Made by a program: the position numbers and the translations under genes. The notes beneath the pieces are model-generated. The model had not been told where the DNA came from, ran no database searches, and saw nothing but the letters and a program-made list of their open reading frames with translations. Source: Cristatella mucedo (lineage: Eukaryota; Bryozoa; Phylactolaemata; Cristatellidae). Taken from it: a stretch of 64,000 bases of DNA. Location of the stretch: contig WPIO01000290.1 of NCBI GenBank assembly GCA_009760855.2, positions 57,241 to 121,240 of the forward strand, written 5' to 3'. Positions 1 to 64,000 of this stretch are shown in pieces; the stretch's first letter is position 1; each line of letters opens with the position of its first letter.

Positions 1-1680
1 TTGAATCAGCTTGTCGGAACGTGCAGTAGCTGGCAGCTGAGTGCTGTACCTTGTTTTTAAGCCATTTGCACTCAAATTGATCATTTCGCACGAGTTCGCT
101 GCAGGTCGCAGGATATTTTCACACTTCAAATCTGCTCGTCGTACCGTGCGGTAGCTGGCAGCAGAGTGCTGCACCTTGTTAAAAGCCGTTTGCACTTGAC
201 TAATTCACTTCGTACGAGGTAGCAGCTGATCGCGGAAAATCTATAAACTTCAAATCTGCTCGACGCAGCCTGCAGTAGCTGGCAGCAGAGTGCTGCAACT
301 TGTTTTACGCCATTTGCCCTTAAATAACTCATTTCGCACGAGTTTACAGCTGATTGCGGAATATCTACACGATTTAAACCTGCTCGTGGCAGCATGTGGT
401 AGCTTGCAGCAGAGTGCTGCACCTTGTTTTAAGCCAATTGCACTTGAAAAATTCATTTTGATCGAGTTGGCAGCAGTTCGTGGAATATGTAGACACTTTA
501 AATCTGCTCGTCGAAGCATGCGGTAGCTGGCAGCAGAGTGCTGCACCTTTCTTTAAGCTATTCGCACTTCAATAATTCATTTCGCACAAGTTCGCAGCAG
601 ATCGTGGATTATCTACACACTTTTAATCTGCTCGTCGGAGCATGGGGTAGCTTGCAAAAGAGTGATGCAATTCGCGTTAAGCCATTTGCATTTGAATAAC
701 TCATTTTGCACGAGTTTGCAGCAGATTGTGGAATATCTACACACTTTAAATCTGCTTGTCGGAGCGTGCGGTAGCTGGCAGCTGAGTGCCGCACCTTGTT
801 TTAAGCAATTCGCACTTGAATACCTCATTTCGCACGACTTCACGGCAGATCGCGGATTATCTACCCACTCTACATCTTCTTGAGACACCGAGCTGTAGTT
901 CGCAGCAGAGTGCTGCACTTTATTTTTGGCTATTCGCAATTGAGTAGGTCATTTCGTTTGAGTTCGCAGCATTTTGCGGAATATGTAAACACTTTTTATC
1001 TGCTCGTCGGAGCGTGTCAGAGCTGACAGAAGGTCGATGCAATTTGTTTTAAGCCATTAGCACTTGAATAACTCTTTTCGCACGACTTCGCAGCAGATCG
1101 TGGAATATCTACAGACTTTCAATCAGCTTGTTGGAACGTGCAGTAGCTGGCAGCTGAGTGCTGCACCTTGTTTTAGTCCATTCGCACTTAAATAGATCAT
1201 TTCGCACAAGTTCGCTGCAGATTGCGGAATATTTTTACACTTCATATCTGCTTGTCGTACCGTGCGGTAGCTGGCAGCAGAGTACTGCACCTCGTTAAAA
1301 GCCATTCGCACTTGACTAACTCATTTCGTACGAGCTAGCAGCTGATCGCCAAATATCTAGAAATATCAAATCTGCTCGTCGCAGCGTGCGGTAGCTGGCA
1401 GCTGAGTGCTGCACCTTGTTTTAGTCTATTCCCACCCTAATAGATCATTTCGCACGAGTTCGCTGTAATTAGCTGAATACTTTTACACTTCAAATTCTCT
1501 CGTCGTACCGTGCGGTAGCTTGCAGCAGAGTGCTGCACCTTGTTAAAAGCCATTCGCACTTGACTAACTCATTTCGTACGAGCTAGCAGCTGATCGCGGA
1601 ATATTTTGAAATTTTAAATCTGCTCGTAGCAGCGTGCGGTAGCTGGCAGCAGAGTGCTGCACCTATTTTTAGGCCATTCG
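1..1680 (+). repeat. Lead-in satellite monomers with 10-monomer duplication
   Basis: About 13.5 monomers precede the regular 21-monomer HOR. The first 600 bp resemble the diverged monomers near 13.6-14.9 kb and 52.6 kb; for example the GACGCAGCCTG variant near 250 recurs near 14890. From about 600 to 1640 the monomer order matches about 1842-2790, a spacing of 1240 bp or ten monomers. Markers are the AGCATTTTGCGG unit near 970 and 2210, and CAGACTTTCAATCAGCTTG near 1111 and 2350. The block is therefore a shifted partial copy of the start of HOR A. No gene or other element is visible. Confidence 0.85.
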
Positions 1681-4280
1681 AACTTGAATATCTCATTTCG
1701 CACGAGTTCGCAGCAGATCACGGAATATTTTCACACTTCAAATCAGCTCGTCGCAGTGTGAGGTCGCTGGGTGCAGAGTGCTGCACCTTGGTTTAAGCAA
1801 CTTGCACTTCAATAATTCGTTTCGCACGAGTTTGCAGCAGATTGCGGAACATTTACACACTTTTAATCAGCTCGTCGGAGCATGCGGTAACTTGCAAAAG
1901 AGTGATGCAATTTGTTTTAAGCCTTTCGAACTTGAATGACTCATTTCGCACGAGTTCGCAGCAGATCGTGGAATATACACACACTTTAAATCTGCTTATT
2001 GGAGCGTGCGGCAGCTGGCAGATGAGTGCCACACCTTGTTTTAAGCCATTCGTTCTTGAAATACCTCATTTCGCACGACTTCGCAGCAGATCGCGGATTA
2101 TCTACACATTTTAAATCTCCTTGAGACACGGCTGTAGTTCGCAGCAGAGTGCTGCTTCTTATTTTTGGCTATTCGCAATATAGTAGGTCATTTCGTTTGA
2201 GTTCGCAGCATTTTGCGGAATATGTAAACACTTTTTATCTGCTCGTCGGAGCGTGTCAGAGCTGATAAGGTCGATGCAATTTGTTTTAAGCCATTAGCAC
2301 TTGAATAACGCTTTTCGCACGACTTCGCAGCAGATCGTGGAATATCTACAGACTTTCAATCAGCTTGTGTGAACGTGCAGTAGCTGGCAGCTGAGTGCTG
2401 CACCTTATTTTAGTCCATTCGCACTTAAATAGATCATTTCGCACAAGTTCGCTGCAGATTGCGGAATATTTTTACACTTCAAATCTGCTTGTCGTACCGT
2501 GCGGTAGCTAGCAGCAGAGTACTGCACCTTGTTAAAAGCCATTCGCACTTGACTAACTCATTTCGTACGAGCTAGCAGCTGATCGCCAAATATCTAGAAA
2601 TATCAAATCTGCTCGTCGCAGCGTGCGGTAGCTGGCAGCTGAGTGCTGCATCTTGTTTTAGTCTATTCCCACCCTAAAAGATCATTTCGCACGAGTTCGC
2701 TGTAATTAGCTGAATACTTTTACACTTCAAATTCTCTCGTCGTACCGTGCGGTAGCTTGCGGCAGAGTGCTGCACCTTGTTAAAAGCCATTCGCACTTAA
2801 ATAACTCATTTCGCACAAACTTGCAGCCGATCACGAAATATCTAGAAACTTTAAATCCCCTCGTCACAGCGTGCAGCAGCAGGCAGCAGACTGATGCAAA
2901 TTGATTTAAGCCATTCGCACTTGAATAACCCATTTCACATGAGTTCGCAGCAGATAGCGGAATATTTACAGACTTTAAATCTGCTTTTCGAAGCGTGCCG
3001 TAGCTGGCAGCTGAGTGTTGAGCTTTGTTTTAGGCCATTCGCCCTCAATAACTCATTTCGCACGAGTTCGCAGCGGATTGAGGAATATCTACACGTTTCA
3101 AACCTGCTCGTGGCAGCATGCGGTAGCTTGCAGCAGAGTGCTGCACCTTGTTTTAAGCCATTCGCACTTGAAATACTCATTTCGTTCGAGTTGGCAGCAG
3201 TTCGCGGAATATGTAAACACTTCAAATCTGCTCGTCGAAGCCTACAGTAGCTGGCAGCAAAGTGCTGCACTTTTCTTGCAGCTATTCGCACTTCAATAAT
3301 TCATTTCGCACGAGTTCGCAGCATATCACGGATTATTTACATACTTATAATTTGTTTGTCGGAGCATGGGGTAGCTGGCAGCAGAGTGCTGCACCTATTT
3401 TTAGGCCATTCGAACTTGAATATCTCATTTCGCACGAGTTCGCTGCAGATCGCAGAATATATTTACACTTCAAATGAGCTCGTCGAAGTGTGCGGTCACT
3501 TGGTGCAGAATGCTACACCTTGCTATAGGCAACTTGCACTTCAATGATTCATTTCGCACGAGTTCGCAGCAGATTGCTGAATATTTACAAACTTTTAATC
3601 TGCTCGTCAGAGCCTGCAGTAGCTAGGAGCAGAGTGCTGCACCTTGCTTGAGGCCATTCGCACATGAATAGATCATTTCAATCGAGTTCGCAGCAGATCG
3701 CGGAATATCTACAAATTTTAACCCTGCTCGTGGCAGCATGCGGTAGCTTGCAGCAGAGTGCTGCACCTTGTTTTTAAGCCATTCGCACTTGAAAAACTCA
3801 TTTCGCTCGAGTTGGCAGCAGTTCGCAGAATATGTAGACACTTCAAATCTGCTCGTCGTAGCGTGTGGTAGCTTGCAGCAGAGTGCTGCACCTTTCTTTA
3901 AGCTATTCGTACTTCTATAATTCATTTCGCACGAGTTCGCAGCAGATCGCGGATGATCTACACACTTTTGATCTGCTCGTCGGAGCATGGGGTAGCTTGC
4001 AGAAGAGCGATGCAATTTGTTTAAACCATTCGCACTTGAATGACTCATTTCGCACGAGTTGTCAGCAGATCTCCGAATATTTTTACACTGAAAATCGGCC
4101 CGTTGGAGCGTGCGGTAGCTGGCAGCAGAGTGATGCAAATTGATTTAAGCCATTCGCACTTGAATTACTCATTTCGCACGAGCTGGCAGCAGATCGGAGA
4201 ATACCTTGACACTTCAAATCTGCTCGTCACAGCTTGCAATAGCTGGCAGCAGAGTGGTTTAATTTAGTTTAAGCCATTCG
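1681..4280 (+). repeat. HOR A copy 1 (21 monomers)
   Basis: First copy of a 21-monomer higher-order unit. Copy starts are set here at an AACTTGAATA word that recurs at 1681, 4281, 6886 and 9490, giving periods of 2600, 2605 and 2604 bp (21 x 124 = 2604). This copy is the most diverged. It carries small deletions near 2120 (GACACGGCTG where the others read GACACCGAGCTG) and near 2267 that account for its shorter length. Its first eight or so monomers are also duplicated upstream at ten-monomer spacing. Confidence 0.93.
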
Positions 4281-6885
4281 AACTTGAATAAGTCATTTCG
4301 CACGAGTTCGCAGCAGATCACGGAATATTTTCACACTTCAAATCAGCTCGTCGCAGTGTGAGGTCGCTGCACGCAGAGTGCTGCACCTTGGTTTAAGCAA
4401 CTTGCACTTCAATAATTCGTTTCGCACGAGTTTGCAGCAGATTGCGGAACATTTACACACTTTTAATCAGCTCGTCGGAGCATGCGGTAACTTGCAGAAG
4501 AGTGATGCAATTTGTTTTAAGCCGTTCGAACTTGAATGACTCATTTCGCACGAGTTCGCAGCAGATCGTGGAATATCCACACACTTTAAATCTGCTTATT
4601 GGAGCGTGCGGCAGCTGGCAGATGAGTGCCACACCTTGTTTTAAGCCATTCGTTCTTGAATACCTCATTTCGCACGACTTCGCAGCAGATCGCGGATTAT
4701 CTACACACATTTTAAATCTCCTTGAGACACCGAGCTGTAGTTCGCAGCAGAGTGCTGCACCTTATTTTTGGCTATTCGCAATTGAGTAGATCATTTCGTT
4801 TGAGTTCGCAGCATTTTGCAGAATATGTAAACACTTTTTATCTGCTCGTCGGAGCGTGTCAGAGCTGACAGAAGGTCGATGCAATTTGTTTTAAGCCATT
4901 AGCACTTGAATAACTCTTTTCGCACGACTTCGCAGCAGATCGTGGAATATCTACAGACTTTCAATCAGCTTGTTGGAACGTGCAGTAGCTGGCAGCTGAG
5001 TGCTGCACCTTATTTTAGTCCATTCGCACTTAAATAGATCATTTCGCACAAGTTCGCTGCGGATTGCGGAATATTTTTACACTTCAAATCTGCTTGTCGT
5101 ACCGTGCGGTAGCTGGCAGCAGAGTACTGCACCTTGTTAAAAGCCATTCGCACTTGACTAACTCATTTCGTACGAGCTAGCAGCTGATCGCCAAATATCT
5201 AGAAATATCAAATCTGCTCGTCGCAGCGTGTGGTAGCAGGACTCTGAGTGCTGCACCTTGTTTTAGTCCATTCCCACCCTAAAAGATCATTTCGCACGAG
5301 TTCGCTGTAATTAGCTAAATACTTTTACACTTCAAATTCTCTCGTCGTACCGTGCGGTAGCTTGCGGCAGAGTGCTGCACCTTGTTAAAAGCCATTCGCA
5401 CTTAAATAACTCATTTCGCACAAACTTGCAGACGATCACGAAATATCTAGAAACTTTAAATCCCCTCGTCACAGCGTGCAGTAGCAGGCAGCAGACTGAT
5501 GCAAATTGATTTAAGCCATTCGCACTTGAATAACCCATTTCACATGAGTTCGCAGCAGATAGCAAAATATCTACAGACTTTAAATCTGCTTTTCGAAGCG
5601 TGCCGTAGCTGGCAGCTGAGTGTTGAGCTTTGTTTTAGGCCATTCGCCCTCAATAACTCATTTCGCACGAGTTCGCAGCGGATTGAGGAATATCTACACG
5701 TTTCAAACCTGCTCGTGGCAGCATGCGGTAGCTTGCAGCAGAGTGCTGCACCTTGTTTTAAGCCATTCGCACTTGAAATACTCATTTCGTTCGAGTTGGC
5801 AGCAGTTCGCGGAATATGTAAACACTTCAAATCTGCTCGTCGAAGCCTACAGTAGCTGGCAGCAAAGTGCTGCACTTTTCTTGCAGCTATTCGCACTTCA
5901 ATAATTCATTTCGCACGAGTTCGCAGCATATCATGGATTATTTACATACTTATAATTTGTTTGTCGGAGCATGGGGTAGCTGGCAGCAGAGTGCTGCACC
6001 TATTTTTAGGCCATTCGAACTTGAATATCTCATTTCGCACGAGTTCGCTGCAGATCGCAGAATATATTTACACTTCAAATGAGCTCGTCGAAGTGTGCGG
6101 TCACTTGGTGCAGAATGCTACACCTTGCTATAGGCAACTTGCACTTCAATGATTCATTTCGCACGAGTTCGCAGCAGATTGCTGAATATTTACAAACTTT
6201 TAATCTGCTCGTCAGAGCCTGCAGTAGCTAGGAGCAGAGTGCTGCACCTTGCTTGAGGCCATTCGCACATGAATAGATCATTTCAATCGAGTTCGCAGCA
6301 GATCGCGGAATATCTACACGATTCAAACCTGCTCGTGGCAGCATGCGGTAGCTTGCAGCAGAGTGCTGCACCTTGTTTTAAGCCATTCGCACTTGAAAAA
6401 ACTCATTTCGCTCGAGTTGGCAGCAGTTCGCAGAATATGTAGACACTTCAAATCTGCTCGTCGTAGCGTGTGGTAGCTTGCAGCAGAGTGCTGCACCTTT
6501 CTTTAAGCTATTCGCACTTCTATAATTCATTTCGCACGAGTTCGCAGCAGATCGCGGATGATCTACACACTTTTAATCTGCTCGTCGGAGCATGGGGTAG
6601 CTTGCAGAAGAGCGATGCAATTTGTTTAAACCATTCGCACTTGAATGACTCATTTCGCACGAGTTGTCAGCAGATCTCCGAATATTTTTACACTGAAAAT
6701 CGGCCCGTTGGAGCGTGCGGTAGCTGGCAGCAGAGTGATGCAAATTGATTTAAGCCATTCGCACTTGAATTACTCATTTCGCACGAGCTGGCAGCAGATC
6801 GGAGAATACCTTGACACTTCAAATCTGCTCGTCACAGCTTGCAATAGCTGGCAGCAGAGTGGTTTAATTTAGTTTAAGCCATTCG
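4281..6885 (+). repeat. HOR A copy 2 (21 monomers)
   Basis: Second copy of the 21-monomer unit, 2605 bp. It is close to copy 3 over its whole length, with only scattered single-base differences by eye, for example a two-base difference in the ACACACATTT run near 4702. The monomers inside the copy differ plainly from one another: GATGCAAATTG, GTTAAAAGCC, CCCTCAATAAC and CTTCAATAATTC units occur in fixed order. High identity between copies with low identity between neighbours is the hallmark of an HOR spread by unequal exchange or amplification of whole blocks. Confidence 0.94.
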
Positions 6886-9489
6886 AACTTGAATAAGTCA
6901 TTTCGCACGAGTTCGCAGCAGATCACGGAATATTTTCACACTTCAAATCAGCTCGTCGCAGTGTGAGGTCGCTGCACGCAGAGTGCTGCACCTTGGTTTA
7001 AGCAACTTGCACTTCAATAATTCGTTTCGCACGAGTTTGCAGCAGATTGCGGAACATTTACACACTTTTAATCAGCTCGTCGGAGCATGCGGTAACTTGC
7101 AGAAGAGTGATGCAATTTGTTTTAAGCCGTTCGAACTTGAATGACTCATTTCGCACGAGTTCGCAGCAGATCGTGGAATATCCACACACTTTAAATCTGC
7201 TTATTGGAGCGTGCGGCAGCTGGCAGATGAGTGCCACACCTTGTTTTAAGCCATTCGTTCTTGAATACCTCATTTCGCACGACTTCGCAGCAGATCGCGG
7301 ATTATCTACACATTTTAAATCTCCTTGAGACACCGAGCTGTAGTTCGCAGCAGAGTGCTGCACCTTATTTTTGGCTATTCGCAATTGAGTAGATCATTTC
7401 GTTTGAGTTCGCAGCATTTTGCGGAATATGTAAACACTTTTTTATCTGCTCGTCGGAGCGTGTCAGAGCTGACAGAAGGTCGATGCAATTTGTTTTAAGC
7501 CATTAGCACTTGAATAACTCTTTTCGCACGACTTCGCAGCAGATCGTGGAATATCTACAGACTTTCAATCAGCTTGTTGGAACGTGCAGTAGCTGGCAGC
7601 TGAGTGCTGCACCTTATTTTAGTCCATTCGCACTTAAATAGATCATTTCGCACAAGTTCGCTGCGGATTGCGGAATATTTTTACACTTCAAATCTGCTTG
7701 TCGTACCGTGCGGTAGCTGGCAGCAGAGTACTGCACCTTGTTAAAAGCCATTCGCACTTGACTAACTCATTTCGTACGAGCTAGCAGCTGATCGCCAAAT
7801 ATCTAGAAATATCAAATCTGCTCGTCGCAGCGTGTGGTAGCAGGACTCTGAGTGCTGCACCTTGTTTTAGTCCATTCCCACCCTAAAAGATCATTTCGCA
7901 CGAGTTCGCTGTAATTAGCTAAATACTTTTACACTTCAAATTCTCTCGTCGTACCGTGCGGTAGCTTGCGGCAGAGTGCTGCACCTTGTTAAAAGCCATT
8001 CGCACTTAAATAACTCATTTCGCACAAACTTGCAGACGATCACGAAATATCTAGAAACTTTTAATCCCCTCGTCACAGCGTGCAGTAGCAGGCAGCAGAC
8101 TGATGCAAATTGATTTAAGCCATTCGCACTTGAATAACCCATTTCACATGAGTTCGCAGCAGATAGCAAAATATCTACAGACTTTAAATCTGCTTTTCGA
8201 AGCGTGCCGTAGCTGGCAGCTGAGTGTTGAGCTTTGTTTTAGGCCATTCGCCCTCAATAACTCATTTCGCACGAGTTCGCAGCGGATTGAGGAATATCTA
8301 CACGTTTCAAACCTGCTCGTGGCAGCATGCGGTAGCTTGCAGCAGAGTGCTGCACCTTGTTTTAAGCCATTCGCACTTGAAATACTCATTTCGTTTCGAG
8401 TTGGCAGCAGTTCGCGGAATATGTAAACACTTCAAATCTGCTCGTCGAAGCCTACAGTAGCTGGCAGCAAAGTGCTGCACTTTTCTTGCAGCTATTCGCA
8501 CTTCAATAATTCATTTCGCACGAGTTCGCAGCATATCATGGATTATTTACATACTTATAATTTGTTTGTCGGAGCATGGGGTAGCTGGCAGCAGAGTGCT
8601 GCACCTATTTTTAGGCCATTCGAACTTGAATATCTCATTTCGCACGAGTTCGCTGCAGATCGCAGAATATATTTACACTTCAAATGAGCTCGTCGAAGTG
8701 TGCGGTCACTTGGTGCAGAATGCTACACCTTGCTATAGGCAACTTGCACTTCAATGATTCATTTCGCACGAGTTCGCAGCAGATTGCTGAATATTTACAA
8801 ACTTTTAATCTGCTCGTCAGAGCCTGCAGTAGCTAGGAGCAGAGTGCTGCACCTTGCTTGAGGCCATTCGCACATGAATAGATCATTTCAATCGAGTTCG
8901 CAGCAGATCGCGGAATATCTACACGATTCAAACCTGCTCGTGGCAGCATGCGGTAGCTTGCAGCAGAGTGCTGCACCTTGTTTTAAGCCATTCGCACTTG
9001 AAAAACTCATTTCGCTCGAGTTGGCAGCAGTTCGCAGAATATGTAGACACTTCAAATCTGCTCGTCGTAGCGTGTGGTAGCTTGCAGCAGAGTGCTGCAC
9101 CTTTCTTTAAGCTATTCGCACTTCTATAATTCATTTCGCACGAGTTCGCAGCAGATCGCGGATGATCTACACACTTTTAATCTGCTCGTCGGAGCATGGG
9201 GTAGCTTGCAGAAGAGCGATGCAATTTGTTTAAACCATTCGCACTTGAATGACTCATTTCGCACGAGTTGTCAGCAGATCTCCGAATATTTTTACACTGA
9301 AAATCGGCCCGTTGGAGCGTGCGGTAGCTGGCAGCAGAGTGATGCAAATTGATTTAAGCCATTCGCACTTGAATTACTCATTTCGCACGAGCTGGCAGCA
9401 GATCGGAGAATACCTTGACACTTCAAATCTGCTCGTCACAGCTTGCAATAGCTGGCAGCAGAGTGGTTTAATTTAGTTTAAGCCATTCG
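6886..9489 (+). repeat. HOR A copy 3 (21 monomers)
   Basis: Third copy, 2604 bp. Conceptual translations of 7058-7384 and of the matching stretch 9662-9988 in copy 4 are identical, which illustrates how little copies 3 and 4 have diverged. A one-base insertion near 8393 (TCGTTTCGAG for TCGTTCGAG) is private to this copy. Confidence 0.94.
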
Positions 9490-10960
9490 AACTTGAATAA
9501 GTCATTTCGCACGAGTTCGCAGCAGATCACGGAATATTTTCACACTTCAAATCAGCTCGTCGCAGTGTGAGGTCGCTGCACGCAGAGTGCTGCACCTTGG
9601 TTTAAGCAACTTGCACTTCAATAATTCGTTTCGCACGAGTTTGCAGCAGATTGCGGAACATTTACACACTTTTAATCAGCTCGTCGGAGCATGCGGTAAC
9701 TTGCAGAAGAGTGATGCAATTTGTTTTAAGCCGTTCGAACTTGAATGACTCATTTCGCACGAGTTCGCAGCAGATCGTGGAATATCCACACACTTTAAAT
9801 CTGCTTATTGGAGCGTGCGGCAGCTGGCAGATGAGTGCCACACCTTGTTTTAAGCCATTCGTTCTTGAATACCTCATTTCGCACGACTTCGCAGCAGATC
9901 GCGGATTATCTACACATTTTAAATCTCCTTGAGACACCGAGCTGTAGTTCGCAGCAGAGTGCTGCACCTTATTTTTGGCTATTCGCAATTGAGTAGATCA
10001 TTTCGTTTGAGTTCGCAGCATTTTTTGCGGAATATGTAAACACTTTTTTATCTGCTCGTCGGAGCGTGTCAGAGCTGACAGAAGGTCGATGCAATTTGTT
10101 TTAAGCCATTAGCACTTGAATAACTCTTTTCGCACGACTTCGCAGCAGATCGTGGAATATCTACAGACTTTCAATCAGCTTGTTGGAACGTGCAGTAGCT
10201 GGCAGCTGAGTGCTGCACCTTATTTTAGTCCATTCGCACTTAAATAGATCATTTCGCACAAGTTCGCTGCGGATTGCGGAATATTTTTACACTTCAAATC
10301 TGCTTGTCGTACCGTGCGGTAGCTGGCAGCAGAGTACTGCACCTTGTTAAAAGCCATTCGCACTTGACTAACTCATTTCGTACGAGCTAGCAGCTGATCG
10401 CCAAATATCTAGAAATATCAAATCTGCTCGTCGCAGCGTGTGGTAGCAGGACTCTGAGTGCTGCACCTTGTTTTAGTTTATTCCCACCCTAAAAGATCAT
10501 TTCGCACGAGTTCGCTGTAATTAGCTAAATACTTTTACACTTCAAATTCTCTCGTCGTACCGTGCGGTAGCTTGCGGCAGAGTGCTGCACCTTGTTAAAA
10601 GCCATTCGCACTTAAATAACTCATTTCGCACAAACTTGCAGACGATCACGAAATATCTAGAAACTTTAAATCCCCTCGTCACAGCGTGCAGTAGCAGGCA
10701 GCAGACTGATGCAAATTGATTTAAGCCATTCGCACTTGAATAACCCATTTCACATGAGTTCGCAGCAGATAGCAAAATATCTACAGACTTTAAATCTGCT
10801 TTTCGAAGCGTGCCGTAGCTGGCAGCTGAGTGTTGAGCTTTGTTTTAGGCCATTCGCCCTCAATAACGCATTTCGCACGAGTTCGCAGCGGATTGAGGAA
10901 TATCTACACGTTTCAAACCTGCTCGTGGCAGCATGCGGTAGCTTGCAGCAGAGTGCTGCA
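9490..10960 (+). repeat. HOR A copy 4, partial (about 12 monomers)
   Basis: The fourth copy follows copy 3 closely but stops about 1471 bp in. After the GAGTGCTGCACC ending at about 10962, the expected TTGTTTTAAGCC of HOR A is replaced by TTTCTTAGGGCTATTC, a variant of the next block. A run of six T near 10021 has two more bases than copy 3. The end falls within a conserved monomer word, as expected if the array switched by exchange between aligned monomers. Confidence 0.9.
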
Positions 10961-11951
10961 CCTTTCTTAGGGCTATTCGCACTTCAACAATTTATTTCGC
11001 ACGAGTTCCCAGCACATCGTGGATTATTTACACACTTTTAATCTGCTCGTCGGAGAATGGGGTAGCTTGTTGAAGAGTGATGCAATTCGATTTAGGCCAT
11101 TTGCATTTGAATAACTCATTTCGCACGAGTTTGCAGCAGATTGTTGAATATCTACACACTTTAAACCTGCTCGTCGGAGCTTGAAGTAGCTGGCAGCTGA
11201 TCGCCGCTCCTTGTTTTAATCCATTCGCACTTGAATACCTCATTTCGCACGAGTTCGCAGCCCATCGCAGAAATTTATCAGACTTCAAATTTGCTTGTCG
11301 TCCGATGCAGAAGCTGGCAGCTGAGTGCTGCACCTGGTTTTAAGCCATTCGCACTTGAATGACTCATTTTGCACAAGTTCGCAGCAGATCGCAGAATATC
11401 TAGACACTTTAAGTCATCTCATCCCGGCGTGCAGTAGCTGGGAGCAGAGTGATTCAATTTGCTTTACGCCATTCGCACTTGATTAACTCCTTTCGCACGA
11501 GTTCGAAGCAGATCGCAGATTATCTACACAGTTTGAATCAGCTCGGCACAGTGAGCAGTCTCTGGCAGCACAGTGCTGCACCTAGCATAAAGCAATTCAC
11601 CCTTGAATAACTCATTTCGCACGAGTTCGCAGCAGTTTGCAGAATATGTAGACACTTTTAATCTGCTCGTCGGAGCATGCTGTACCTAGCAGCAGAGTGA
11701 TGCAATTTGTTTTAAGCCATTCGCACTTAAATAACCCATTTCACACGAGTTCGCAGCAGATGGCAGAATATCTCCAGATTATAAATTTGCTTTTCGAAGG
11801 GTGCGGTAGCTGGCAGCTAAGTGCTGAGCCTTGCTTTAGCCCATTCGCCCTCAATAACTCATTTCGCACGAGTACACAGCGGATTGCGGAATATCTACAT
11901 GTTTCAAACCTGCTCGTGGCAGCATGCGGTAGCTTGCAGCAGAGTGCTGCA
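10961..11951 (+). repeat. HOR B copy 1 (8 monomers)
   Basis: First of two eight-monomer blocks. The variant CCTTTCTTAGGGC begins at 10961 and again at 11952, a spacing of 991 bp (8 x 124 = 992). Stretches starting at 11697 and 12688 match at the same spacing. Shared markers include ATTTATTTCGCACGAGTTCCCAG and the GAAGAGTGATGCAATTCG unit, here named only by short words. Divergence between the two copies is clearly greater than within HOR A or H. Confidence 0.83.
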
Positions 11952-53870: not shown

Positions 53871-56720
53871 TTAGGCCATTCGCCCTCAATAACTCATTTC
53901 GCAAGAGTTCGCAGCTGCTTGCTGAATATCTACACGTTTCAAACCTGCTCGTGGCAGCATGCGGTAGCTTGCAGCAGAGTGCTGCACCTTGTTTTAAGCC
54001 ATTCGCACTTGAAAAACTCATTTCGTTCGAGTTGGCAGTGGTTCGCGGAATATGTAAACACTTAAAATCTGCTCGTCGGAGCCTGGAGTAACTAGCAGCA
54101 GAGTGCTGCACCTTTCTTTAAGCTATTCGCACTTCAATAATTCATTTTGCACGAGTTAGCAGCAGATCACGGATTATCTACACACTTATAATTTGCTCAT
54201 CGGAGCATGGGGTACCTTGCAGAAAAGTGATGCAATTTGCTTTAAACCATTCGCATTTGAATAACTCATTTCGCACGAGTTCGCAGCAGATTGTGGAATA
54301 TCTACACACTTTAAATCTGCTTGTCGGAGCGTGCTGTAGCAGGCAGCTGAGTGCCACACCTTGTTTTAAGCCATTCGCACTTGAATACCTCATTTCGCAC
54401 GACTTCGCATGGGATCGCGGATTATCTACCCACTTTAAATCTCCGTGACGCACCTTGCTGTATCTCACAGCAGAGTGCTGCACCTTATTTTAGGCTAATT
54501 GCAATTGAATAACTCATTTCCTTCGAGTTTGCAGCAATTCGCAGAATATGTAGACACTTTTAATTTGCTCGTCGGTGCATGTAAGAGCTGACAGATAGTT
54601 GATGCAATTTGTTTTAAGCCATTAGCACTTGAATAACTCTTTTCGCACGACTTCGCAGCAGATCGTGGAATATCTACAGACTTTTAATCAGCTTGTCGGG
54701 ACGTGCAGTTGCTGGCAGCTGAGTGCTGCACCTTGTTTTAGTCCATTCGCACTTGAATAGATCATTTCGCACGAGTTCGCTGCAGATCGCGGAATATTTT
54801 TACACTTTAAATCTGCTCGTTGTACCGTGCTGTAGCTGGCAGCAGAGTGGTGCACCTTGTTAAAAGCCATTCGCACTTGACTAACTCATTTCGTACGAGG
54901 TAGCAGCTGATTGAGGAATATCTAGAAATATCAAATCTGCTCGTCACAGCTTGCGGTAGCTGGCAGCAGAGTGCTTCAGCTTTTTTTAAGCTAATCGAAC
55001 TTGAATAACTCATTTCGCACGAGTTAGCTGCAGATCGCGGAATATTTTCAAACTTCAAATTAGCTCGTCGCAGTGTGCGGTCACTTGGTGCAAAGTGCTG
55101 CACCTTGCTTTAAGCAACTTGCACTTCAATTATTCATTTCGCACGAGTTCGCAGCAGATTGCTGAATATTTACATACTTTTAATCTGCTCGTCAGAGCCT
55201 GCGGTAGCTGGCAGCAGAGTGCTGCACCTTGCTTGAGGCCATTCCCACTCGAATAGATCATTTCGCACGAGTTCGCAGCAGATCGCAGATTATCTATGCA
55301 CTTTAAATCAGCTCGTTGCAGCAAGCAGTCTCTGGCAGCACAGTGCTGCACCTAGAATTAAGCCATTCATCCTTGAATAAATCATTTCAATCGAGTTCGA
55401 AGCATATCGCGGAATATCTACAAACTTTTAATCTGCTCGTCGCAGCTAGCAGTCTCTGGCAGAACAGTGGTGCACCTAGCGTTAAGCCATTCACCCTAGA
55501 ATAACCTATTTCGCTCGAGTTCGCAGCAGATCTCAGAATATCTACACACTTCAAATCTGCTCGTCAGAGCGTGCGGTAGCTGACGGCAGATTGCTGCACC
55601 TTGCTTGAGGCCATTCCAAGTCGAATAGATCATTTCGCACGAGTTCGCAGCAGATCGCAGATTATCTATGCACTTCTAATCAGCTCGTCGCAGCGAGCAG
55701 TCTCTGGCAGCACAGTGCTGCACCTAGCATTAAGCCATTCACCCTTGAATAAATCATTTCGTCCGAGTTCGCAGCAGTTTGCGGAATATGTAGACACATT
55801 TAATCTGCTCGTCGGAGCATGCTGTACCTAGCAGCAGAGTGATGCAATTTGTTTTAAGCCATTCGCACTTGAATAATCTATTTTACACGAGGTCCCAGCA
55901 GATGGCGGAATATCTACAGACTTTAAATCTGCTTTTCGAAGTATGTGGTAGCTGGCAGCTGAGTGCTGCGCCTTGTTTTAGGCCATTCGCCCTGAATAAC
56001 TCATTTCGCACGAGCTCCCAGCGGATTGCAAAATATCTACACGTTTCAAACCTGCTCGTGGCAGAATGCGGTAGCTTGCAGGAGAGTGCTGCACCTTGTT
56101 TTAAGCCATTCGCACTTCAATAATTCATTTTGCACGAGTTCGCAGCAGATCACGGATTATCAACACACCTATAATTTGTTCGTCGGAGCATGGGGTAGCT
56201 TGCAGAAGAGTGATGCAATTCGCTTTAAGCCATTCGCATTTGAATAACTCATTTCGCACGAGTTCGCAGCAGATTGTGGAATATCTACTCACTTTAAATC
56301 TGCTTGTCGGAGAATGAGCTAGCAGGCAGCTGAGTGCCTCACCTTGTTTTAAGCCATTCGCACTTGAATACCTCATTTCGCACGACTTCGCATGGGATCG
56401 CGGATTATCTACCCACTTTAAATCTCCGTGACGCACCGTGCTGTATCTCACAGCAGAGTGCTGCACCTTCTTTTAGGCTATTCGCAATTGAATAACCTAT
56501 TTCGTTTGAGTTCACAGCAGTTCGCGGAAGATGTAGATACTTTTAAACTGCTCGTCGGTGCGTGTGAGAGTTGACAGAAGCTTGATGCAATTTGTTTTAA
56601 GCCATTAGCACTTGAATAACTCTTTTCGCACGACTTCGCAGCAGATCGTCGAATATCTACAGACTTTCAATCAGCTTGTTGGAACGTGCAGTAGCTGGCA
56701 GCTGAGTGCTGCACCTTGTT
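53871..56720 (+). repeat. HOR J copy 1 (about 23 monomers)
   Basis: The word TTAGGCCATT before CGCCCTCAATAAC lies at 53871 and 56721, 2850 bp apart. Matching points are 54178 and 57028, 54227 and 57077, 54688 and 57538. After about 55235 the spacing becomes 2973 bp (CGCAGCTAGC at 55441 and 58414), so the second copy is one monomer longer there. Confidence 0.88.
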
Positions 56721-59695
56721 TTAGGCCATTCGCCCTCAATAACTCATTTCGCAAGAGTTCGCAGCTGATTGCTGAATATCTACACGTTTCAAACCTGCTC
56801 GTGGCAGCATGCAGTAGCTTGCAGCAGAGTGCTGCACCTTGTTTTAAGCCATTCGCACTTGAAAAACTCATTTCGTTCGAGTTGGCAGCGGTTCGCGGAA
56901 TATGTAAACACTTAAAATCTGCTCGTCGGAGCCTGGAGTAACTAGCAGCAGAGTGCTGCACCTTTCTTTAAGCTATTCGCACTTCAATAATTCATTTTGC
57001 ACGAGTTCGCAGCAGATCACGGATTATCTACACACTTATAATTTGCTCATCGGAGCATGGGGTACCTTGCAGAAAAGTGATGCAATTTGCTTTAAGCCAT
57101 TCGCATTTGAATAACTCATTTCGCACGAGTTCGCAGCAGATTGTGGAATATCTACACACTTTAACTCTGCTTGTCGGAGCATGCTGTAGCAGGCAGCTGA
57201 GTGCCGCACCTTGTTTTAAGCCATTCGCACTTGAATACCTCATTTCGCACGACTACGCATGGGATCGCGGATTATCAACCCACTTTAAATCTCCGTGACG
57301 CACCGTGCTGTATCTCACAGCAGAGTGCTGCACCTTATTTTAGGCTAATCGCAATTGAATAACTCATTTCCTTCGAGTTCGCAGCAATTCGCAGAATATG
57401 TAGACACTTTTAATTTGCTCGTCGGTGCGTGTAAGAGCTGACAGATAGTTGATGCAATTTGTTTTAAGCCATTAGCACTTGAATAACTCTTTTCGCACGA
57501 CTTCGCAGCAGATCGTGGAATATCTACAGACTTTTAATCAGCTTGTCGGAACGTGCAGTTGCTGGCAGCTGAGTGCTGCACCTTGTTTTAGTCCATTCGC
57601 ACTTGAATAGATCATTTCGCACGAGTTCGCTGCAGATCGCACAATATTTTTACACTTTAAATCTGCTTGTCGTACCGTGCTGTAGCTGGCAGCAGAGTGC
57701 TGCACCTTGCTAAAAGCCATTCGCACTTGACTAACTCATTTCGAACGAGGTAGCAGCTAATTGAGGAATATCTGGAAATATCAAATCAGCTCGTCACAGC
57801 GTGCGGTAGCTGGCAGCAGAGTGCTTCAGCTTTTTTTAAGCTAATCGAACTTGAATAACTCATTTCTCACGAGTTAGCTGCAGATCGCGGAATATTTTCA
57901 CACTTCAAATTAGCTCGTCGCAGTGTGCGATCACTTGGTGCAAAGTGCTGCACCTTGCTTTAAGCAACTTGCACTTCAATTATTCATTTCGCACGAGTTC
58001 GCAGCAGATTGCTGAATATTAGATACTTTTAATCTGCTCGTCAGAGCCTGCGGTAGCTGGCAGCAGAGTGCTGCACCTTGCTTGAGGCCATTCGCACATG
58101 AATAGATCATTCTAATCGAGTTCGCAGCAGATCGCGGAATATCTACACGATTCAAACCTGCTCGTGGCAGCATGCGGTAGCTTGAAGCAGAGTGCTGCAC
58201 CTTGTTTTAAGCCATTTGCACTTGAAAAACTTATTGCGTTCGAGTTGGCAGCAGTTCGCGGATTATGTAAACACTTCAAATCTGCTCGTCGGAGCGTTTG
58301 GTTGCTGGCAGCAGAGTGTTGCACCTTTCTTAGGGCTATTCGCACTTCAATAATTCATTTCGCACGAGTTCCCAGCAGATCGCGGATTATCTACAAACTT
58401 TTAATCTGCTCGTCGCAGCTAGCAGTCTCTGGCAGCACAGTGGTGCACCTAGCGTTAAGCCATTCACCCTAGAATAACTTATTTCGCTCGAGTTCGCAGC
58501 AGATCGCAGAATATCTACACACTTCAAATCTGCTCGTCAGAGCGTGCGGTAGCTGACGGCAGATTGCTGCACCTTGCTTGAGGCCATTCCCACTCGAATA
58601 GATCATTTCGCACGAGTTCGCAGCAGATCGCAGATTATCTATGCACTTTTAATCAGCTCGTCGCAGCGAGCAGTCTCTGGCAGCACTGTGCTGCACCTAG
58701 CATTAAGCCATTCACCCTTGAATAAAACATTTTGTCCGAGTTCGCAGCAGTTTGCGGAATATGTGAGACACATTTAATCTGCTCGTCGGAGCATGCTGTA
58801 CCTAGCAGCAGAGTGATGCAATTTGTTTTAAGCCATTCGCACTTGAATAACCTATTTCACACGAGTTCCCAGCAGATGGCGGAATATCTACAGACTTTAA
58901 ATCTGCTTTTCGAAGTATGCGGTAGCTGGCAGCTGAGTGCTGCGCCTTGTTTTAGGCCATTCGCCCTGAATAACTCATTTCGCACGAGTTCCCAGCGGAT
59001 TGCAAAATATCTACACGTTTTCAAACCTGCTCGTGGAAGCATGCGATAGCTTGCAGCAGAGTGCTGCACCTTGTTTTAAGCCATTCGCACTTCAATAATT
59101 CATTTTGCACGAGTTCGCAGCAGATCAGGGATTATCTACACACTTATAATTTGCTCGTCGGAGCATGGGGTAGCTTGCAGAAGAGTGATGCAATTCGCTT
59201 TAAGCCATTCGCATTTGGATAACTCATTTCGCACGAGTTCGCAGCAGATTGTGGAATATCTACTCACTTTAAATCTGCTTGTCGGAGAATGCAGTAGCAG
59301 GCAGCTGAGTGCCTCACCTTGTTTTAAGCCATTCGCACTTGAATACCTCATTTCGCACGACTTCGCATGGGATCGCGGATTATCTACCCACTTTAAATCT
59401 CCGTGACGCACCGTGCTGTATCTCACAGCAGAGTGCTGCACCTTTTATTAGGCTATTCGCAATTGAATAACTCATTTCGTTCGACTTCGCAGCAGTTCGT
59501 TGAATATGTAGACACTTTTAATCTGCTCGTCGGTGCGTGTGAGAGCTGACAAAAGGTTGATGCAATTTGTTTTAAGCCATTTGCACTTGAATAACTCTTT
59601 TCGCACGACTTCGCAGCAGATCGTCGAATATCTACAGACTTTCAATCAGCTTGTTGGAACGTGCAGTAGCTGGCAGCTGAGTGCTGCACCTTGTG
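56721..59695 (+). repeat. HOR J copy 2 (about 24 monomers)
   Basis: Second copy, about 2.97 kb. Between about 58085 and 58410 it carries CACATGAATAG, TTGAAAAACTTATTG and TTTCTTAGGGC monomers in place of the CACTCGAATAG and CATCCTTGAATAAATC monomers of copy 1. This substitutes different monomers and adds a net single monomer. The two copies match over the rest of their length. The copy ends near 59695, where GTGTTAGTCC replaces GTTTTAGGCC. Confidence 0.86.
57100..57223 (+). repeat. Example monomer with internal 10-bp phasing
   Basis: This unit shows the internal plan of the monomer. TCGC words begin at 57101, 57121 and 57131, spaced 20 and 10 bp. In the commoner ATCGCGG form of the monomer a fourth TCGC follows 10 bp later; here that site reads ATTGTGG, a double CpG transition. 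A GCAGCAG box starts at monomer position 34, and in most monomers a second one starts at position 94, exactly 60 bp on (here altered to GCAGCTG). The monomer therefore looks built from roughly ten-base blocks and perhaps from two related halves of 60 and 64 bp. That origin is inference; the spacings are direct. Confidence 0.85.
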
Positions 59696-61291
59696 TTAGT
59701 CCATTCGCACTTAAATAGATCATTTCGCACAAGTTCGCAGCAGATCGCAGATTATCTATGCACTTTTAATCAGCTCGTCGCAGCGAGCAGTCTCTGGCAG
59801 CACAGTGCTGCACCTAGCATTAAGCCATTCACCCTTGAATAAATCATTTCGCACGAGTTCCCAGCAGATCGCGGATTATCTACACACTTTTAATCTGCTC
59901 GTCGGAGCATGGGGTAGCTTGCAGAAGAGTGATGCAATTCGCTTTAAGCCATTCGCATTTGAATAACTCCATTTCGCACGAGTGCGCAGCAGATTGTTGA
60001 ATATCTACACACTTTAAATCTGCTTGTCGGAGCGTGCGGTAGCTGGCAGCTGTGTGCCGCACCTAGTTTTAATCCATTCGCACTTGAATACCTCATTTAG
60101 CAGGGAGTTCGCAGCAGATCGCAGAATATTTTCAGACTTCTAATTTGCTTGTCTTAGAGTGCAGAAGCTGGCAGCTGAGTGCTGCACCTGGTTTTAAGCC
60201 TTTCGCACTTGAATGACTCATTTTGCACGAGTTGGCAGCAGATCGCAGATTATCTAGACACTTTAAAGTCATCTCGTCCCGGCGTACAGTAGCTGGGAGC
60301 AGAGTGATTCAATTTGTTTTTTACGCCATTCGCACTCTATTATTTCCTTTCGCAAGAGTTCGCAGCAGATCGCAGATTATCTACACATTTTTAATCAGCT
60401 CGTCGCAGCGAGCAGTCACTGGCAGCACAGTGCTGCACCTAGCGTTAAGCCATTCACCCTTGAATAACTCATTTCGCTCTAGTTCGCAGCAGATCGCAGA
60501 ATATCTACACACTTCAAATCTGCTAGTCAGACCGTGCGGTAGCTGACGGCAGATTGCTGCACCTTGCTTGAGGCCATTCCCACTCGAATAGATCATTTCG
60601 CACGAGTTCGCTGCAGATCGCAGAATATTTTCAGACTTCAAATTTGCTTGTCGTAGTGTGCAGAAGCTGGCAGCTGAGTGCTGCACCTGGTTTTAAGCCA
60701 TTCGCTCTTGAATGACTCATTTTGCACGAGTTCGCAGCAGATCGCAGAATACCTAGAAACTTCAAAATCTGCTCGTCGCAGCATGCAATAGCTGGCAGCA
60801 GAGTGCTGCACCTTGCTAAAAGCCATTCGCACTTGACTAACTCATTTCGTACGAGCTAGCAGCTGATTGCAGAATATCTAGAAATATCAAATCTGCTCGT
60901 CAGAGCGTGCGGTAGCTGGAAGCAGAGTGCTTCACCTTTTTTTTAACCAATCGAACTTGAATAACTCATTACGCACGAGTTAGCTGCAGATCGCGGAATA
61001 TTTTCACACTTCAAATTACCTTGTCCCAGTGCCCCGTCACTTGGTGCAAAGTGCTGCAACTTGCTTTAAGCAACTTGCACTTCAATTTTATAATTTCGCA
61101 CGAGTTCGCAGCAGATTGCTGAATATTTACATACTTTTAATCTGCTCGTCTGAGCCTGGGGTGGCTGGCAGCAGAGTGATGCACGTTGCTTGAGGCCATT
61201 CGCACATAAATAGATCATTTCAATCGAGTTCGCAGCAGATCGCGGAATATCTACACAATTCAAACCTGCTCGTGGCAGCATGCGGTAGCTT

Positions 61292-61306
61292 GCAGCAGAG
61301 TGCTGC
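61292..61306 (+). repeat. Example of the monomer dyad (6-bp arms, 3-base centre)
   Basis: GCAGCA, GAG, TGCTGC: a perfect inverted repeat with six-base arms. It occurs at monomer positions 94-108 in most units of the array. A stronger form in the monomers with CTCTGGCAGCACAG reads GCAGCAC, A, GTGCTGC with seven-base arms, for example 60422-60436. Monomers with GCAGCTGAGTGCTGC or GAGTGATGCAA lose part of it. Short dyads that may extrude as hairpins have been proposed as a feature of centromeric satellites lacking a CENP-B box; any such role here is inference. Confidence 0.8.
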
Positions 61307-61890
61307 ACCTTGTTTTAAAGCCATTTGCACTTGAAAAAATCATTTCGCTCGTGTGTGCAGCAGTTCGCAGAATATGTAGACACTTTAAATCTGCTCGTCG
61401 GAGCGTGCGGTAGCTGGCAGCAGATTGCCGCACCTTTCTTTAGGCTATTGGCACTTCAATAATTCATTTCGCACGAGTTCGCCGCAGATCGCAGACTATC
61501 TACACGCTTTTAATCTGCTCGTCGCAGCAAGCAGTCTCTGGCACCACAGTGCTGCACCTAGCGTTAAGCCTTTCACCCTTGAATAACTCATTTCGCTCGA
61601 GTTCGCAGCAGATCGCAGAATATCTACACACTTCAAATCTGCTAGTCAAAGCGTGCGGTAGCTGACGGCAGATTGCTGCACCTTGCTTGCGGCCATTCCC
61701 ACTCGAATAGATCATTTCGCACGAGTTAGCAGCAGATCGCAGATTCTCTTCACACTTTAAATCGTCCCGTCGGAGCGTGCGGCAGCTGGCAGCAGAGTGC
61801 TGCACCTTGTTTTAAGCCATTCGAACTTAAACAACTCATTTCGGTCGTGTTTGACGCTGATTGCGGAATATTTTCGCACTTGAAGACAGC

Positions 61891-61910
61891 TCGTCCTTGC
61901 TTTTATGCCA
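61891..61910 (+). other. 34-bp deletion inside one monomer
   Basis: The sequence reads GCTCGTCC directly followed by TTGCTTTTATGCC. Other units of this class, for example near 28087-28145, have about 34 bases between these words, including GCTGTAGCTGGCAGCCGAG. A TTGCT word occurs at both edges of the missing piece, so slippage or short-homology loss is possible. It lies near the start of the error-dense zone, so an assembly fault cannot be excluded. Confidence 0.7.
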
Positions 61911-62170
61911 CACACACTTCAATAATTCATTTCGCTCGAGTTCGCAGCAGATCTCGGAATATCTAGACACTTTAGGTCATCTCGTCCCAGCGTGCAGTAG
62001 CTGGGAGCAGAGTGATTCAATTTGTTTTATGTCATTCGCACTTGATTAACTTCTTTCCACGAGTTCGCAGCAGATCGCAGATTATCTGCACACTTTTAAT
62101 CAGCTCGTCGGAGCATGCGGTAGCTTTCAGAAGAGTGCTGCACCTTCCTTGAGGCCATTCGCACATGAAT

Positions 62171-64000
62171 AGATCATTTAATCGAGTGTCACAGCAGATC
62201 GCGGAATATCTACACGCTTCAAACCTGCTCGTCGCAGCATGCGGTAGCTTGCAGAAGAGTGCTGCACCTTGCTTTAAGCCATGGCACGTGAATAAAAAAC
62301 CATGTCGCTCTGCTTTGGCAGCTGTTCGCGGAAAAATGTATACACTTCAAATCTGCTCGTCGGAAGCGTGCGGTAGCTGGCAGCAGAGATTGCCGCACCT
62401 TTCTTGAAGCTATTCAGCCATCTATAATTCATTTCGCACGAGTTCGCAGCAGATCGCGGATGCTCTACACACTTTTAATCCTGCTCGTCGGGCATTAAAG
62501 GTAGCTTGCAGAAAGAGTGATGCAATTCGCTGTTAAGCGCATTCGATTTGGATATAACTCATAACTCGCACGAGTTTCGCAGCACGATTTGTTAAAAGTA
62601 TTCTTAGCAACTTCAAATCGCTTATCGGAGCGTGCGGTAGCGGCAAGCTGAGTGCTGCCGCACACTATTTTTAATTCCATTCGCACTTGAATACCTCAGT
62701 ATCGACACGAAGCTATCCGCGGCAGACTCGCGGATTATCTACACACTGTTAATACTCGGCTTGACACACCGTTGCTGTACCTCGCAGCAGAGTGCTGGCA
62801 ACCTTCCTATTAGGCTTTCGCAATTGAATAACTCATTTCGTTCGAGTTCGCAGCAGTTCGCGGAATATGTATGACGATCCATTCTAAAATCTGCTCGTTC
62901 TGGATGCGTGTGAGAGCTGACAGAAGGTTTGATGCAATTTGCTTTAAGCCATTAGCACTTAAATTCAACTCTTTTCGCACGACTTCGGCAGGCAGAAGAT
63001 ACGTGCGAAATATTCTTACCGACTTTCAATCAGCTGTTTTCGGGAACGTGTGCAGATAGCTCGGCAGCTGAGTGCCTGACAAACTTGTTTTAGTCCAGTT
63101 CCCACTTAAATAGATCATTTTTTGTTGCGCACGAGTTCCGCTGTAATTAGCGGAAATACTTTTACACTCTGCAAATTCTCGTAGTCGTACCTTGCGGTAG
63201 ACTTGCCAGCAGAGTGCTGCGCCTATGGTTAAAGCAATTCGCACTTGAAGCTAAACTCATTTCGTACTAGCTACCAGCTGATCGCGGAATAGTTTGAAAT
63301 TTTAAATCTTGCGTCGTAGCCGCGTTGCGGTGTACTGGCAGCAGAAGTGCCTGCACCTATTTTTATGGCCATCGAACTTTGGAATATCTCAGTTCGCCGA
63401 GTTCGCTGCGAGATCGCGGAATATATTCACACTTAAATTCAGGTCGTCGGAAGTGTGCGGTCACTTGGTGCAGAAATGTACTACAAACCCTTGCTTTAAG
63501 CAACTTGCAACTCAATGAGTCATTTCGCAAGAAACGAGTTCGCAGCAGATTGCTCGAAAATTTTTACAAAACTTTTTTAATCTGCTCTCGTCAGATGCCT
63601 GCGGTAGCTTGGGGAGCAGAAGCTGCTGCACTTGCTTTGAGGATTTCGCAACATGAATAGGATCATTTCAATCGAGTTCGCGCAGCAGATCGCTGGGAAT
63701 TAATCTACAACAGATTCAACCTGCTTGTGGCAGCAGTCGGTAGCTTGTGCAGCAGAGTAGCTGCACCTTGTTTTTTTTTTAAGCCAGTTCGCACTTGAAA
63801 AACTCATTTCGCTCGAAAGTTGGCAGCAGTTCGCGGAATATTGTCGGACACCTTTCAAATCTGCTCGTCGTAGCGTGGTGGTAGCCTTGCAGCAGAAGGG
63901 GGTGGGCTGCAACCTTTCTGTATAAGCATTCCGCACTTTAATAATCATTTCGCACGAGTTCGCAGCAGATCGCGGATGATCTACACACTTTTAATCTGCT
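62171..64000 (+). other. Error-dense satellite, probably unpolished long-read sequence
   Basis: The monomers continue but small insertions and run expansions appear every few bases. An example is 63541-63600, 60 bases that match 51 bases at 3565-3615. Another is the run of ten T near 63770. Substitutions are comparatively few. That profile is typical of raw single-molecule reads and not of satellite divergence elsewhere in the window. The monomer order from about 62930 matches A-type monomers: the TTTGAAATTTTAAATC unit near 63293 matches about 1604, and 63600-64000 matches about 3600-3980. The true sequence here should not be read base by base. Confidence 0.85.

What the first reader, a model, noticed from the sequence alone, without database searches (positions are those of the whole stretch)
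1..64000. Unrecognised 124-bp satellite with at least five distinct higher-order repeats in 64 kb
Seen directly: blocks of 21, 8, 15/13, 13 and 23 monomers (plus a 23/24-monomer pair) follow one another in one orientation with no other DNA between. Multi-scale HOR structure is best known from primate alpha satellite (171 bp). Several unrelated HOR sizes side by side on a 124-bp monomer would be a useful independent case of centromere-style array evolution.
Basis: partly seen in the sequence, partly recalled or inferred. Interest (0 to 1): 0.8.

Follow-up and report, generated by a model that had tools for sequence, protein, structure and literature searches.

The report
Animal satellite with layered higher-order repeats
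A 64-kb stretch of an animal genome is nothing but a 124-base tandem repeat that has been copied again and again in blocks of 8 to 24 units, much like the repeats of primate centromeres but with only two to four copies of each block.

Summary
The window is the last 64 kb of a 121-kb contig made of a 124-bp satellite in one orientation. Neighbouring monomers are about 75% identical, while blocks of 21, 8, 15, 13 (twice) and 23 monomers, and a 23/24-monomer pair, recur at 93-99%. Permuting monomer order destroys this (longest run 53 monomers, 3-4 in 20 permutations). These are real higher-order repeats (HORs), but each has only about 2-3.5 copies, and older copies (92-93%) link distant parts of the array. 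A second array, in contig C59, also shows recurring HOR-like spacings. This fits repeated, mostly in-register block duplication by unequal exchange or a replication-based equivalent. The host is an animal, by recall of COX1 a spiralian and probably a mollusc. The satellite is very roughly 1% of the assembly. Centromere function could not be tested; there is no CENP-B box excess and no dyad excess. The last 1.7 kb looks like unpolished long read, so its 136-146-bp 'monomers' are not real. HORs outside primates are known, so I file this as a new member of a known kind.

The parts
1..61882 (+). 124-bp satellite array, single orientation, about 500 monomers
   Evidence: TRF period 124, 4-61871; cyclic alignment to the consensus, 429 of the window's 518 rows exactly 124 bp
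1741..10915 (+). 21-monomer HOR, 2600-2605 bp, ~3.5 copies, 99.1% identical at one unit's shift
10793..12897 (+). 8-monomer HOR, 991 bp, ~2 copies, 93.2%
14882..19969 (+). 15-monomer HOR, 1861 bp, ~2.7 copies, 97.4%
18605..21580 (+). 13-monomer HOR, 1612 bp, ~1.9 copies, 93.6%
23441..23500 (+). truncated monomer (60 bp), one of three clearly truncated rows inside the array
30811..33779 (+). second 13-monomer HOR, 1607 bp, ~1.9 copies, 97.8%
29570..37002 (+). 42-monomer (5202 bp) pair, 29570-31799 vs 34772-37002, 97.5%, overlapping the second 13-monomer block
37623..47053 (+). 23-monomer HOR, 2851-2857 bp, ~3.3 copies, 99.4%
47054..47134 (+). truncated monomer (81 bp) at the end of the 23-monomer block
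53819..59643 (+). two-copy unit of 23/24 monomers (shift 2850 bp, then 2973 bp), 96.5%
12527..14633 (+). older layer: 17 monomers matching 49610-51712 (shift 37,083 bp) at 91.9%
24615..26473 (+). older layer: 15 monomers matching 59892-61759 (shift 35,277 bp) at 93.3%
61883..61974 (+). truncated monomer (92 bp)
62300..64000 (+). contig end with ~13 scattered inserted bases per monomer; probably unpolished long-read sequence of the same satellite, not 136-146-bp monomers

Best explanation
The window is part of a long tandem array of a 124-bp satellite in an animal, probably a spiralian and a mollusc. Shown: monomers inside a unit are about 75% identical, while whole units of 8-24 monomers recur at 93-99%; older and younger block copies overlay each other; the block shifts are within 5 bp of whole numbers of monomers; a second array has recurring spacings of its own. 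Inferred: blocks of roughly ten to fifty monomers are repeatedly duplicated and lost, mostly in register, by unequal sister-chromatid exchange or a break-induced, replication-based equivalent. Once a block is doubled, its near-identical copies recombine more easily, so 3-4-copy HORs arise locally before later events overwrite them. Inferred and less sure: the array lies in centromeric or pericentromeric heterochromatin (about 0.45 likely).
For: Diagonals at 2600, 991, 1861, 1612, 1607 and 2857 bp, and block copies with graded divergence from 0.6% to 8%. Permuting monomer order gives runs of 3-4 against 53 observed, 20 permutations. The nearest relative of a monomer is within 5 positions for 0 of 497 monomers in the window and 1 of 884 kept rows in the contig, against a mean of 11 (minimum 2 in 2000 draws) for random partners; no adjacent pair reaches 90% identity (0 of 876). 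In a toy block duplication/deletion model, units averaging 3 monomers give 54-161 short-lag partners per 500, units of 1-60 or 8-60 give 0-21, with a median best match of 0.97-0.99 (observed 0.976; 6 runs for each of two event numbers). The 57 kb upstream has further lags (12, 34, 11, 22, about 55). In C59, same-variant spacings of 6877, 3033 and 1861 bp recur. The motif occurs 8040 times in the assembly, its reversed control 0 times.
Against: No chromatin or cytogenetic data. No CENP-B box excess (3 one-mismatch hits, 5.0 expected). No excess of short dyads (61 observed, Markov null mean 68.6, range 54-94, 20 draws). The toy model does not separate units of 1-60 from 8-60 monomers, its background identity (0.65-0.71) is below the observed 0.753 and its fifth-percentile best match (0.74-0.90) is below the observed 0.911, so it is only a sketch. 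Some similar pairs do lie at short lags (58 pairs at >=0.9 over lags 2-7). The C59 spacings had no chance control and come from a part of a capped list.
Confidence: 0.8

Rival explanations
1. The HOR blocks are largely an assembly artefact: an assembler joined haplotypes or repeated read overlaps in tandem, or collapsed a longer array.
For: The contig has 121 kb and is satellite from end to end. Contig 39.6-48.1 kb and the last 1.7 kb carry about 9-13 scattered inserted bases per monomer, as in unpolished reads. The 21- and 23-monomer copies are >99% identical, so copy number there is uncertain.
Against: Of the 12 block pairs aligned, all carry substitutions (28 to 166) and identity is graded from 92% to 99.4%. 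Overlapping layers at many shifts are not what a single misjoin gives. A second contig, C59, shows recurring spacings too (no chance control).
Confidence: 0.1
2. An ordinary non-centromeric satellite (interstitial or subtelomeric heterochromatin) whose HORs reflect recombination alone, without any chromosome function.
For: Smith's unequal-exchange model needs no selection (review PMC8122249, passages). No CENP-B box or dyad excess. Abundance is only about 0.7-1.1% of the assembly by a rough estimate.
Against: Long arrays in two contigs (C59 and C211) with different favoured variants resemble chromosome-specific centromeric arrays; their chromosomal place is not shown.
Confidence: 0.45
3. The array is the functional centromere repeat of this animal, an independent analogue of alpha-satellite HOR arrays.
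For: HOR layout as in alpha satellite: units internally ~75% identical, between copies up to 99.4%. At least thousands of copies. C59 and C211 differ in their favoured variant: 64 of the 100 listed C59 matches (my count of the printed list) end in GCCGA, against C at that column in about 2% of 880 C211 monomers.
Against: Units have only 2-3.5 copies here. No centromere protein data. It is unknown whether every chromosome carries an array.
Confidence: 0.4

Closest known systems
Primate alpha satellite HOR arrays (171 bp)
   Same: Divergent monomers (~70% identical) arranged in multi-monomer units whose copies are up to 97-100% identical (figures from PMC8122249, passages); different unit sizes on different arrays.
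   Different: 124 bp not 171; no CENP-B box excess; only 2-3.5 copies per unit in the window; several unit sizes inside one 64-kb stretch; host is an invertebrate-type animal by its mitochondrial code.
Lusy1, 124-bp holocentromere satellite of Luzula sylvatica
   Same: Same monomer length; abundant tandem satellite (PMC11538461, abstract and passages).
   Different: Plant. The term 'higher-order' does not occur in that paper's main text. Its sequence was not seen, so sequence identity is untested.
Tribolium madens TmSat1/TmSat2 (HOR-derived beetle satellites)
   Same: Invertebrate satellites built from a ~110-bp unit through HORs (PMC13081366, passages).
   Different: Those arrays show macro-dyad symmetries; this window is in one orientation. 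They derive nearly 38% of that genome against roughly 1% of the assembly here.
Bivalve satellite SSUsat (315 bp, Spisula subtruncata)
   Same: Molluscan tandem satellite, at least 1.3% of its genome (PMC5537241, start of abstract, passages).
   Different: No HOR organisation was found in its cloned multimers; monomer length differs; sequences not compared.

Membership tests
Satellite DNA with higher-order repeats | Long head-to-tail array of one monomer | tested here: met
   121-kb contig, 976 rows, 752 of exactly 124 bp
Satellite DNA with higher-order repeats | Monomers within a unit diverged, copies of the unit near-identical | tested here: met
   adjacent ~0.75; unit copies 93-99%
Satellite DNA with higher-order repeats | Periodicity beyond chance ordering of monomers | tested here: met
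   53-monomer run against 3-4 in 20 permutations
Primate alpha satellite | 171-bp monomer | tested here: not met
   124 bp
Primate alpha satellite | CENP-B box in a share of monomers | tested here: not met
   motif typed from recall; 3 one-mismatch hits in the window, 5.0 expected by chance
Homogenised active-type HOR array | Tens to hundreds of copies of one unit (recalled) | tested here: not met
   ~1.9-3.5 copies per unit in the window (coordinates); a collapsed assembly could hide more
Centromeric satellite | CENP-A/CENH3 binding or location at the primary constriction | not testable with these tools
   no chromatin data or karyotype
Centromeric satellite | Enrichment in short dyad symmetry (frequent, not obligatory) | tested here: not met
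   61 dyads against null mean 68.6, range 54-94, 20 first-order Markov draws
Lusy1 (Luzula) | Sequence identity to Lusy1 | not tested
   only passages of the main text were read, consensus not seen; host is animal
BIV160 and other conserved molluscan satellites | Sequence identity | not tested

The most novel reading that the evidence does not exclude
A spiralian (probably molluscan) centromere satellite that independently evolved alpha-satellite-like organisation, caught in a state where many HOR units of different size and age coexist within 100 kb and none has taken over. That would make it a natural record of how HORs start and are overwritten.
Probability: 0.35. Interest if true: 0.6.

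Novelty: new member of a known kind. Interest (0 to 1): 0.38.

Why it matters
HOR evolution is best documented in primates, where (by recall) one unit usually dominates an array. An array of another animal branch with seven HOR blocks of different size and age in 64 kb, no row of the polished window longer than 132 bp and so no sizeable insertion, and a second array with other spacings lets models of block duplication be fitted outside primates. If the repeat proves centromeric it would be a rare case in this branch, as far as I know. If not, it shows that HOR layering can be a general result of recombination rather than a sign of centromere function.

Tried and rejected
Non-satellite features: Rfam at gathering thresholds 0 matches, ARAGORN 0 genes. 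CENP-B box: no excess. Hairpin in the monomer: the consensus folds no better than shuffles (z -0.58), and of five window samples one did (z -2.68, window 33000-33123). In the GCAGCA/TGCTGC hairpin 199 of 727 gap-free monomers keep all six pairs; four pairs are held at about the rate expected for independent columns, two somewhat above it (638 against 622, 581 against 537), and only 16 of 4362 cells are compensated, so I found no good sign of selection for it. 136-146-bp monomers at the window end as a second monomer class: rejected as unpolished sequence. A minimum duplicated unit size: not claimed, because toy models with units of 1-60 and 8-60 monomers overlap. Luzula Lusy1 as identity: rejected on host grounds only. 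Lutraria rhynchaena, a clam with a genome of similar size by recall, was searched for but nothing tied it to this assembly (listing only). A search on assembly numbers found one paper, a moth genome note. COX1 against the PDB gives mostly mammalian chains first (by recall of the entries) and does not place the phylum.

'Not described' is not claimed.

Full report
WHERE IT LIES. The window is G000:C211:57241-121240, the last 64 kb of a 121,240-bp contig in an unnamed 572-Mb assembly of 688 contigs. The genome is animal. Of 66 core-histone matches many lie a few kilobases from one another, and one locus holds an ordinary-looking H2B frame (L026; named by recall). The COX1 gene on the 21,008-bp contig C688 has 11 TGA codons in frame and reads without stops in tables that make TGA tryptophan and AGA/AGG sense codons; table 2 gives 8 stops. 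Its AGA, AGG and ATA codons sit at sites that, by recall, fit serine and methionine. From recall of animal COX1 sequences, this code and the residues around MFVVGMDVDTRAYF point to a spiralian, most likely a mollusc and perhaps a bivalve. No database call placed the species (PDB search).

CHECK OF THE OBSERVATION. TRF's main row is an array of period 124 over 4-61871. A cyclic alignment to the consensus splits the window into 518 rows, 429 of exactly 124 bp, and the whole contig into 976 rows, 752 of 124 bp. All align in one orientation and no other DNA was recognised. Mean pairwise monomer identity is 0.753, and adjacent monomers (0.71-0.76 per block, 0.68 in the last) are no more alike than random pairs. 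Whole blocks recur: 21 monomers (2600 bp, 99.1%), 8 (991 bp, 93.2%), 15 (1861 bp, 97.4%), 13 (1612 bp, 93.6%), 13 again (1607 bp, 97.8%), 23 (2857 bp, 99.4%), and a two-copy 23/24 unit (96.5%). With monomer order permuted, the longest unbroken run of similar monomers falls from 53 to 3 or 4 in all 20 trials. Of 497 window monomers (rows outside 118-132 bp and the noisy end dropped), 472 lie in runs of four or more at 0.88 identity, 276 at 0.95 and 174 at 0.98.

LAYERS. The blocks are not of one age. Besides the fresh 21- and 23-monomer units there are older copies, such as 12527-14633 against 49610-51712 at 91.9% and 24615-26473 against 59892-61759 at 93.3%. A 42-monomer pair (97.5%) overlaps the second 13-monomer block. 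The 57 kb upstream shows further lags, among them 12, 34, 11, 22 and about 55 monomers (the last partly in unpolished sequence). Each unit in the window has only about 1.9 to 3.5 copies by its coordinates, so this is a mosaic of small HORs and not one long homogenised HOR array.

HOW IT PROBABLY WORKS. A monomer's closest relative is within five positions for 0 of 497 in the window. In the contig it is so for 1 of 884 kept rows, against a mean of 11 and a minimum of 2 in 2000 draws of random partners. No adjacent pair reaches 90% identity (0 of 876). Some pairs at lags 2-7 do: 58 over the six lags. The turnover unit is therefore mostly a block of many monomers. In a toy duplication/deletion model, units averaging three monomers give 54-161 short-lag partners per 500, while units of 1-60 or 8-60 give 0-21 (6 runs for each of two event numbers). 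The model does not show a minimum unit, and its background identity (0.65-0.71) is lower than the real one. The block shifts lie within 5 bp of whole multiples of 124, and the array has three clearly truncated rows (60, 81 and 92 bp). I infer homology-guided, in-register exchange rather than random end joining. In C59 the spacings of 24.5 and 55.5 monomers suggest half-monomer joints carried along inside units.

ELSEWHERE IN THE GENOME. A degenerate motif that catches 246 places among the 976 rows of C211 has 3666 forward and 4374 reverse matches in the assembly, with 0 for the reversed control. Scaled by that catch rate this is about 32,000 monomers or 4 Mb. Scaled by the rate in the listed part of C59 (100 matches in 81 kb) it is about 6.5 Mb. 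That is 0.7-1.1% of the assembly and only a rough figure. Only the first 100 places were printed; all are in C59, from 711,993 to 793,299 and on one strand, so an array begins there after about 712 kb of contig without a match. 64 of these 100 (my count) end in GCCGA, while C211 has C at that column in about 2% of 880 monomers, which suggests array-biased variants. In 53 of the 100 places (the first 45 and last 2 left out), same-variant spacings of 6877 bp (6 pairs), 3033 bp (5, within 1 bp) and 1861 bp (5, within 1 bp) recur; this had no chance control. An exact 46-base consensus stretch occurs four times: twice in C211, once in C272 and once in C285. The exact 43-base consensus stretch occurs nowhere in the assembly. 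How the satellite is spread over the other contigs I could not learn, because the next pattern did not complete (and 12 retries).

ASSEMBLY QUALITY. From about 62.3 kb to the end the rows carry 13.2 inserted bases each (13 of 13 rows with four or more), against 0.20 in the rest of the window (1 of 503 rows). Contig 39.6-48.1 kb shows the same (9.4 per row, 41 of 65 rows); the contig before 39.5 kb has 6 of 319 such rows and 48.2-57.2 kb 0 of 73. Both stretches align to the polished array with a net excess of inserted bases. I read them as unpolished long-read sequence. The copy number of the >99% identical blocks may also be wrong. The HOR pattern as a whole is not explained this way, because the 12 aligned block pairs differ by 28 to 166 substitutions each.

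FUNCTION TESTS. There is no CENP-B box excess, no excess of short dyads, and no RNA family match. A 6-bp hairpin in the consensus is complete in 199 of 727 monomers and shows 16 compensated cells of 4362, with two of six pairs held somewhat above expectation. CpG sites show more transitions than other sites (G>A 16.3% against 3.8%, C>T 11.4% against 7.3%, 880 monomers). This hints at germline methylation, but the copies are not independent. Nothing here shows or excludes a centromere.

COMPARISON. HOR structure as such is known in primates and beetles (PMC8122249, passages; PMC13081366, passages). In my searches the only other 124-bp satellite monomer was Lusy1 of Luzula (PMC11538461, found, passages), whose sequence I did not see; the 124-bp element in the Tribolium paper is a chimeric junction. 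Molluscan satellite papers that surfaced as listings include one that found no HORs in SSUsat (PMC5537241, passages) and one that mentions HOR units as a process in general terms (PMC5874043, passages). I do not claim that this satellite is undescribed.

VERDICT. A real, well-formed HOR satellite in a non-primate animal: a new member of a known kind, with an instructive mosaic of small HORs of different age. Interest is moderate, and would rise if the array proves centromeric.

Noticed in passing
62300-64000 (and contig C211 39.6-48.1 kb, outside the window): About 9-13 scattered inserted bases per monomer, net insertion-biased; looks like unpolished single-read sequence at the contig end and in one internal block.
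   Followed up: yes
G000:C59:711993-793299 and perhaps beyond (outside the window): A second array of the same satellite inside a larger contig, with recurring spacings of 6877, 3033 and 1861 bp and a different favoured variant. Its border with other DNA could not be read.
   Followed up: partly
1-64000: CpG sites of the monomer (10 per 124 bp, observed/expected 1.29) show raised G>A and C>T change across the contig's polished monomers, a hint of methylation in the germ line.
   Followed up: partly
G000:C688 (outside the window): A 21,008-bp mitochondrial contig, and partial COX1 matches with stops in C166, C83, C549 and C299 that may be nuclear copies.
   Followed up: no
window:33000-33123: One monomer-long sample folds better than its shuffles (z -2.68, 2 of 200 shuffles as good), unlike four other samples and the consensus.
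   Followed up: no
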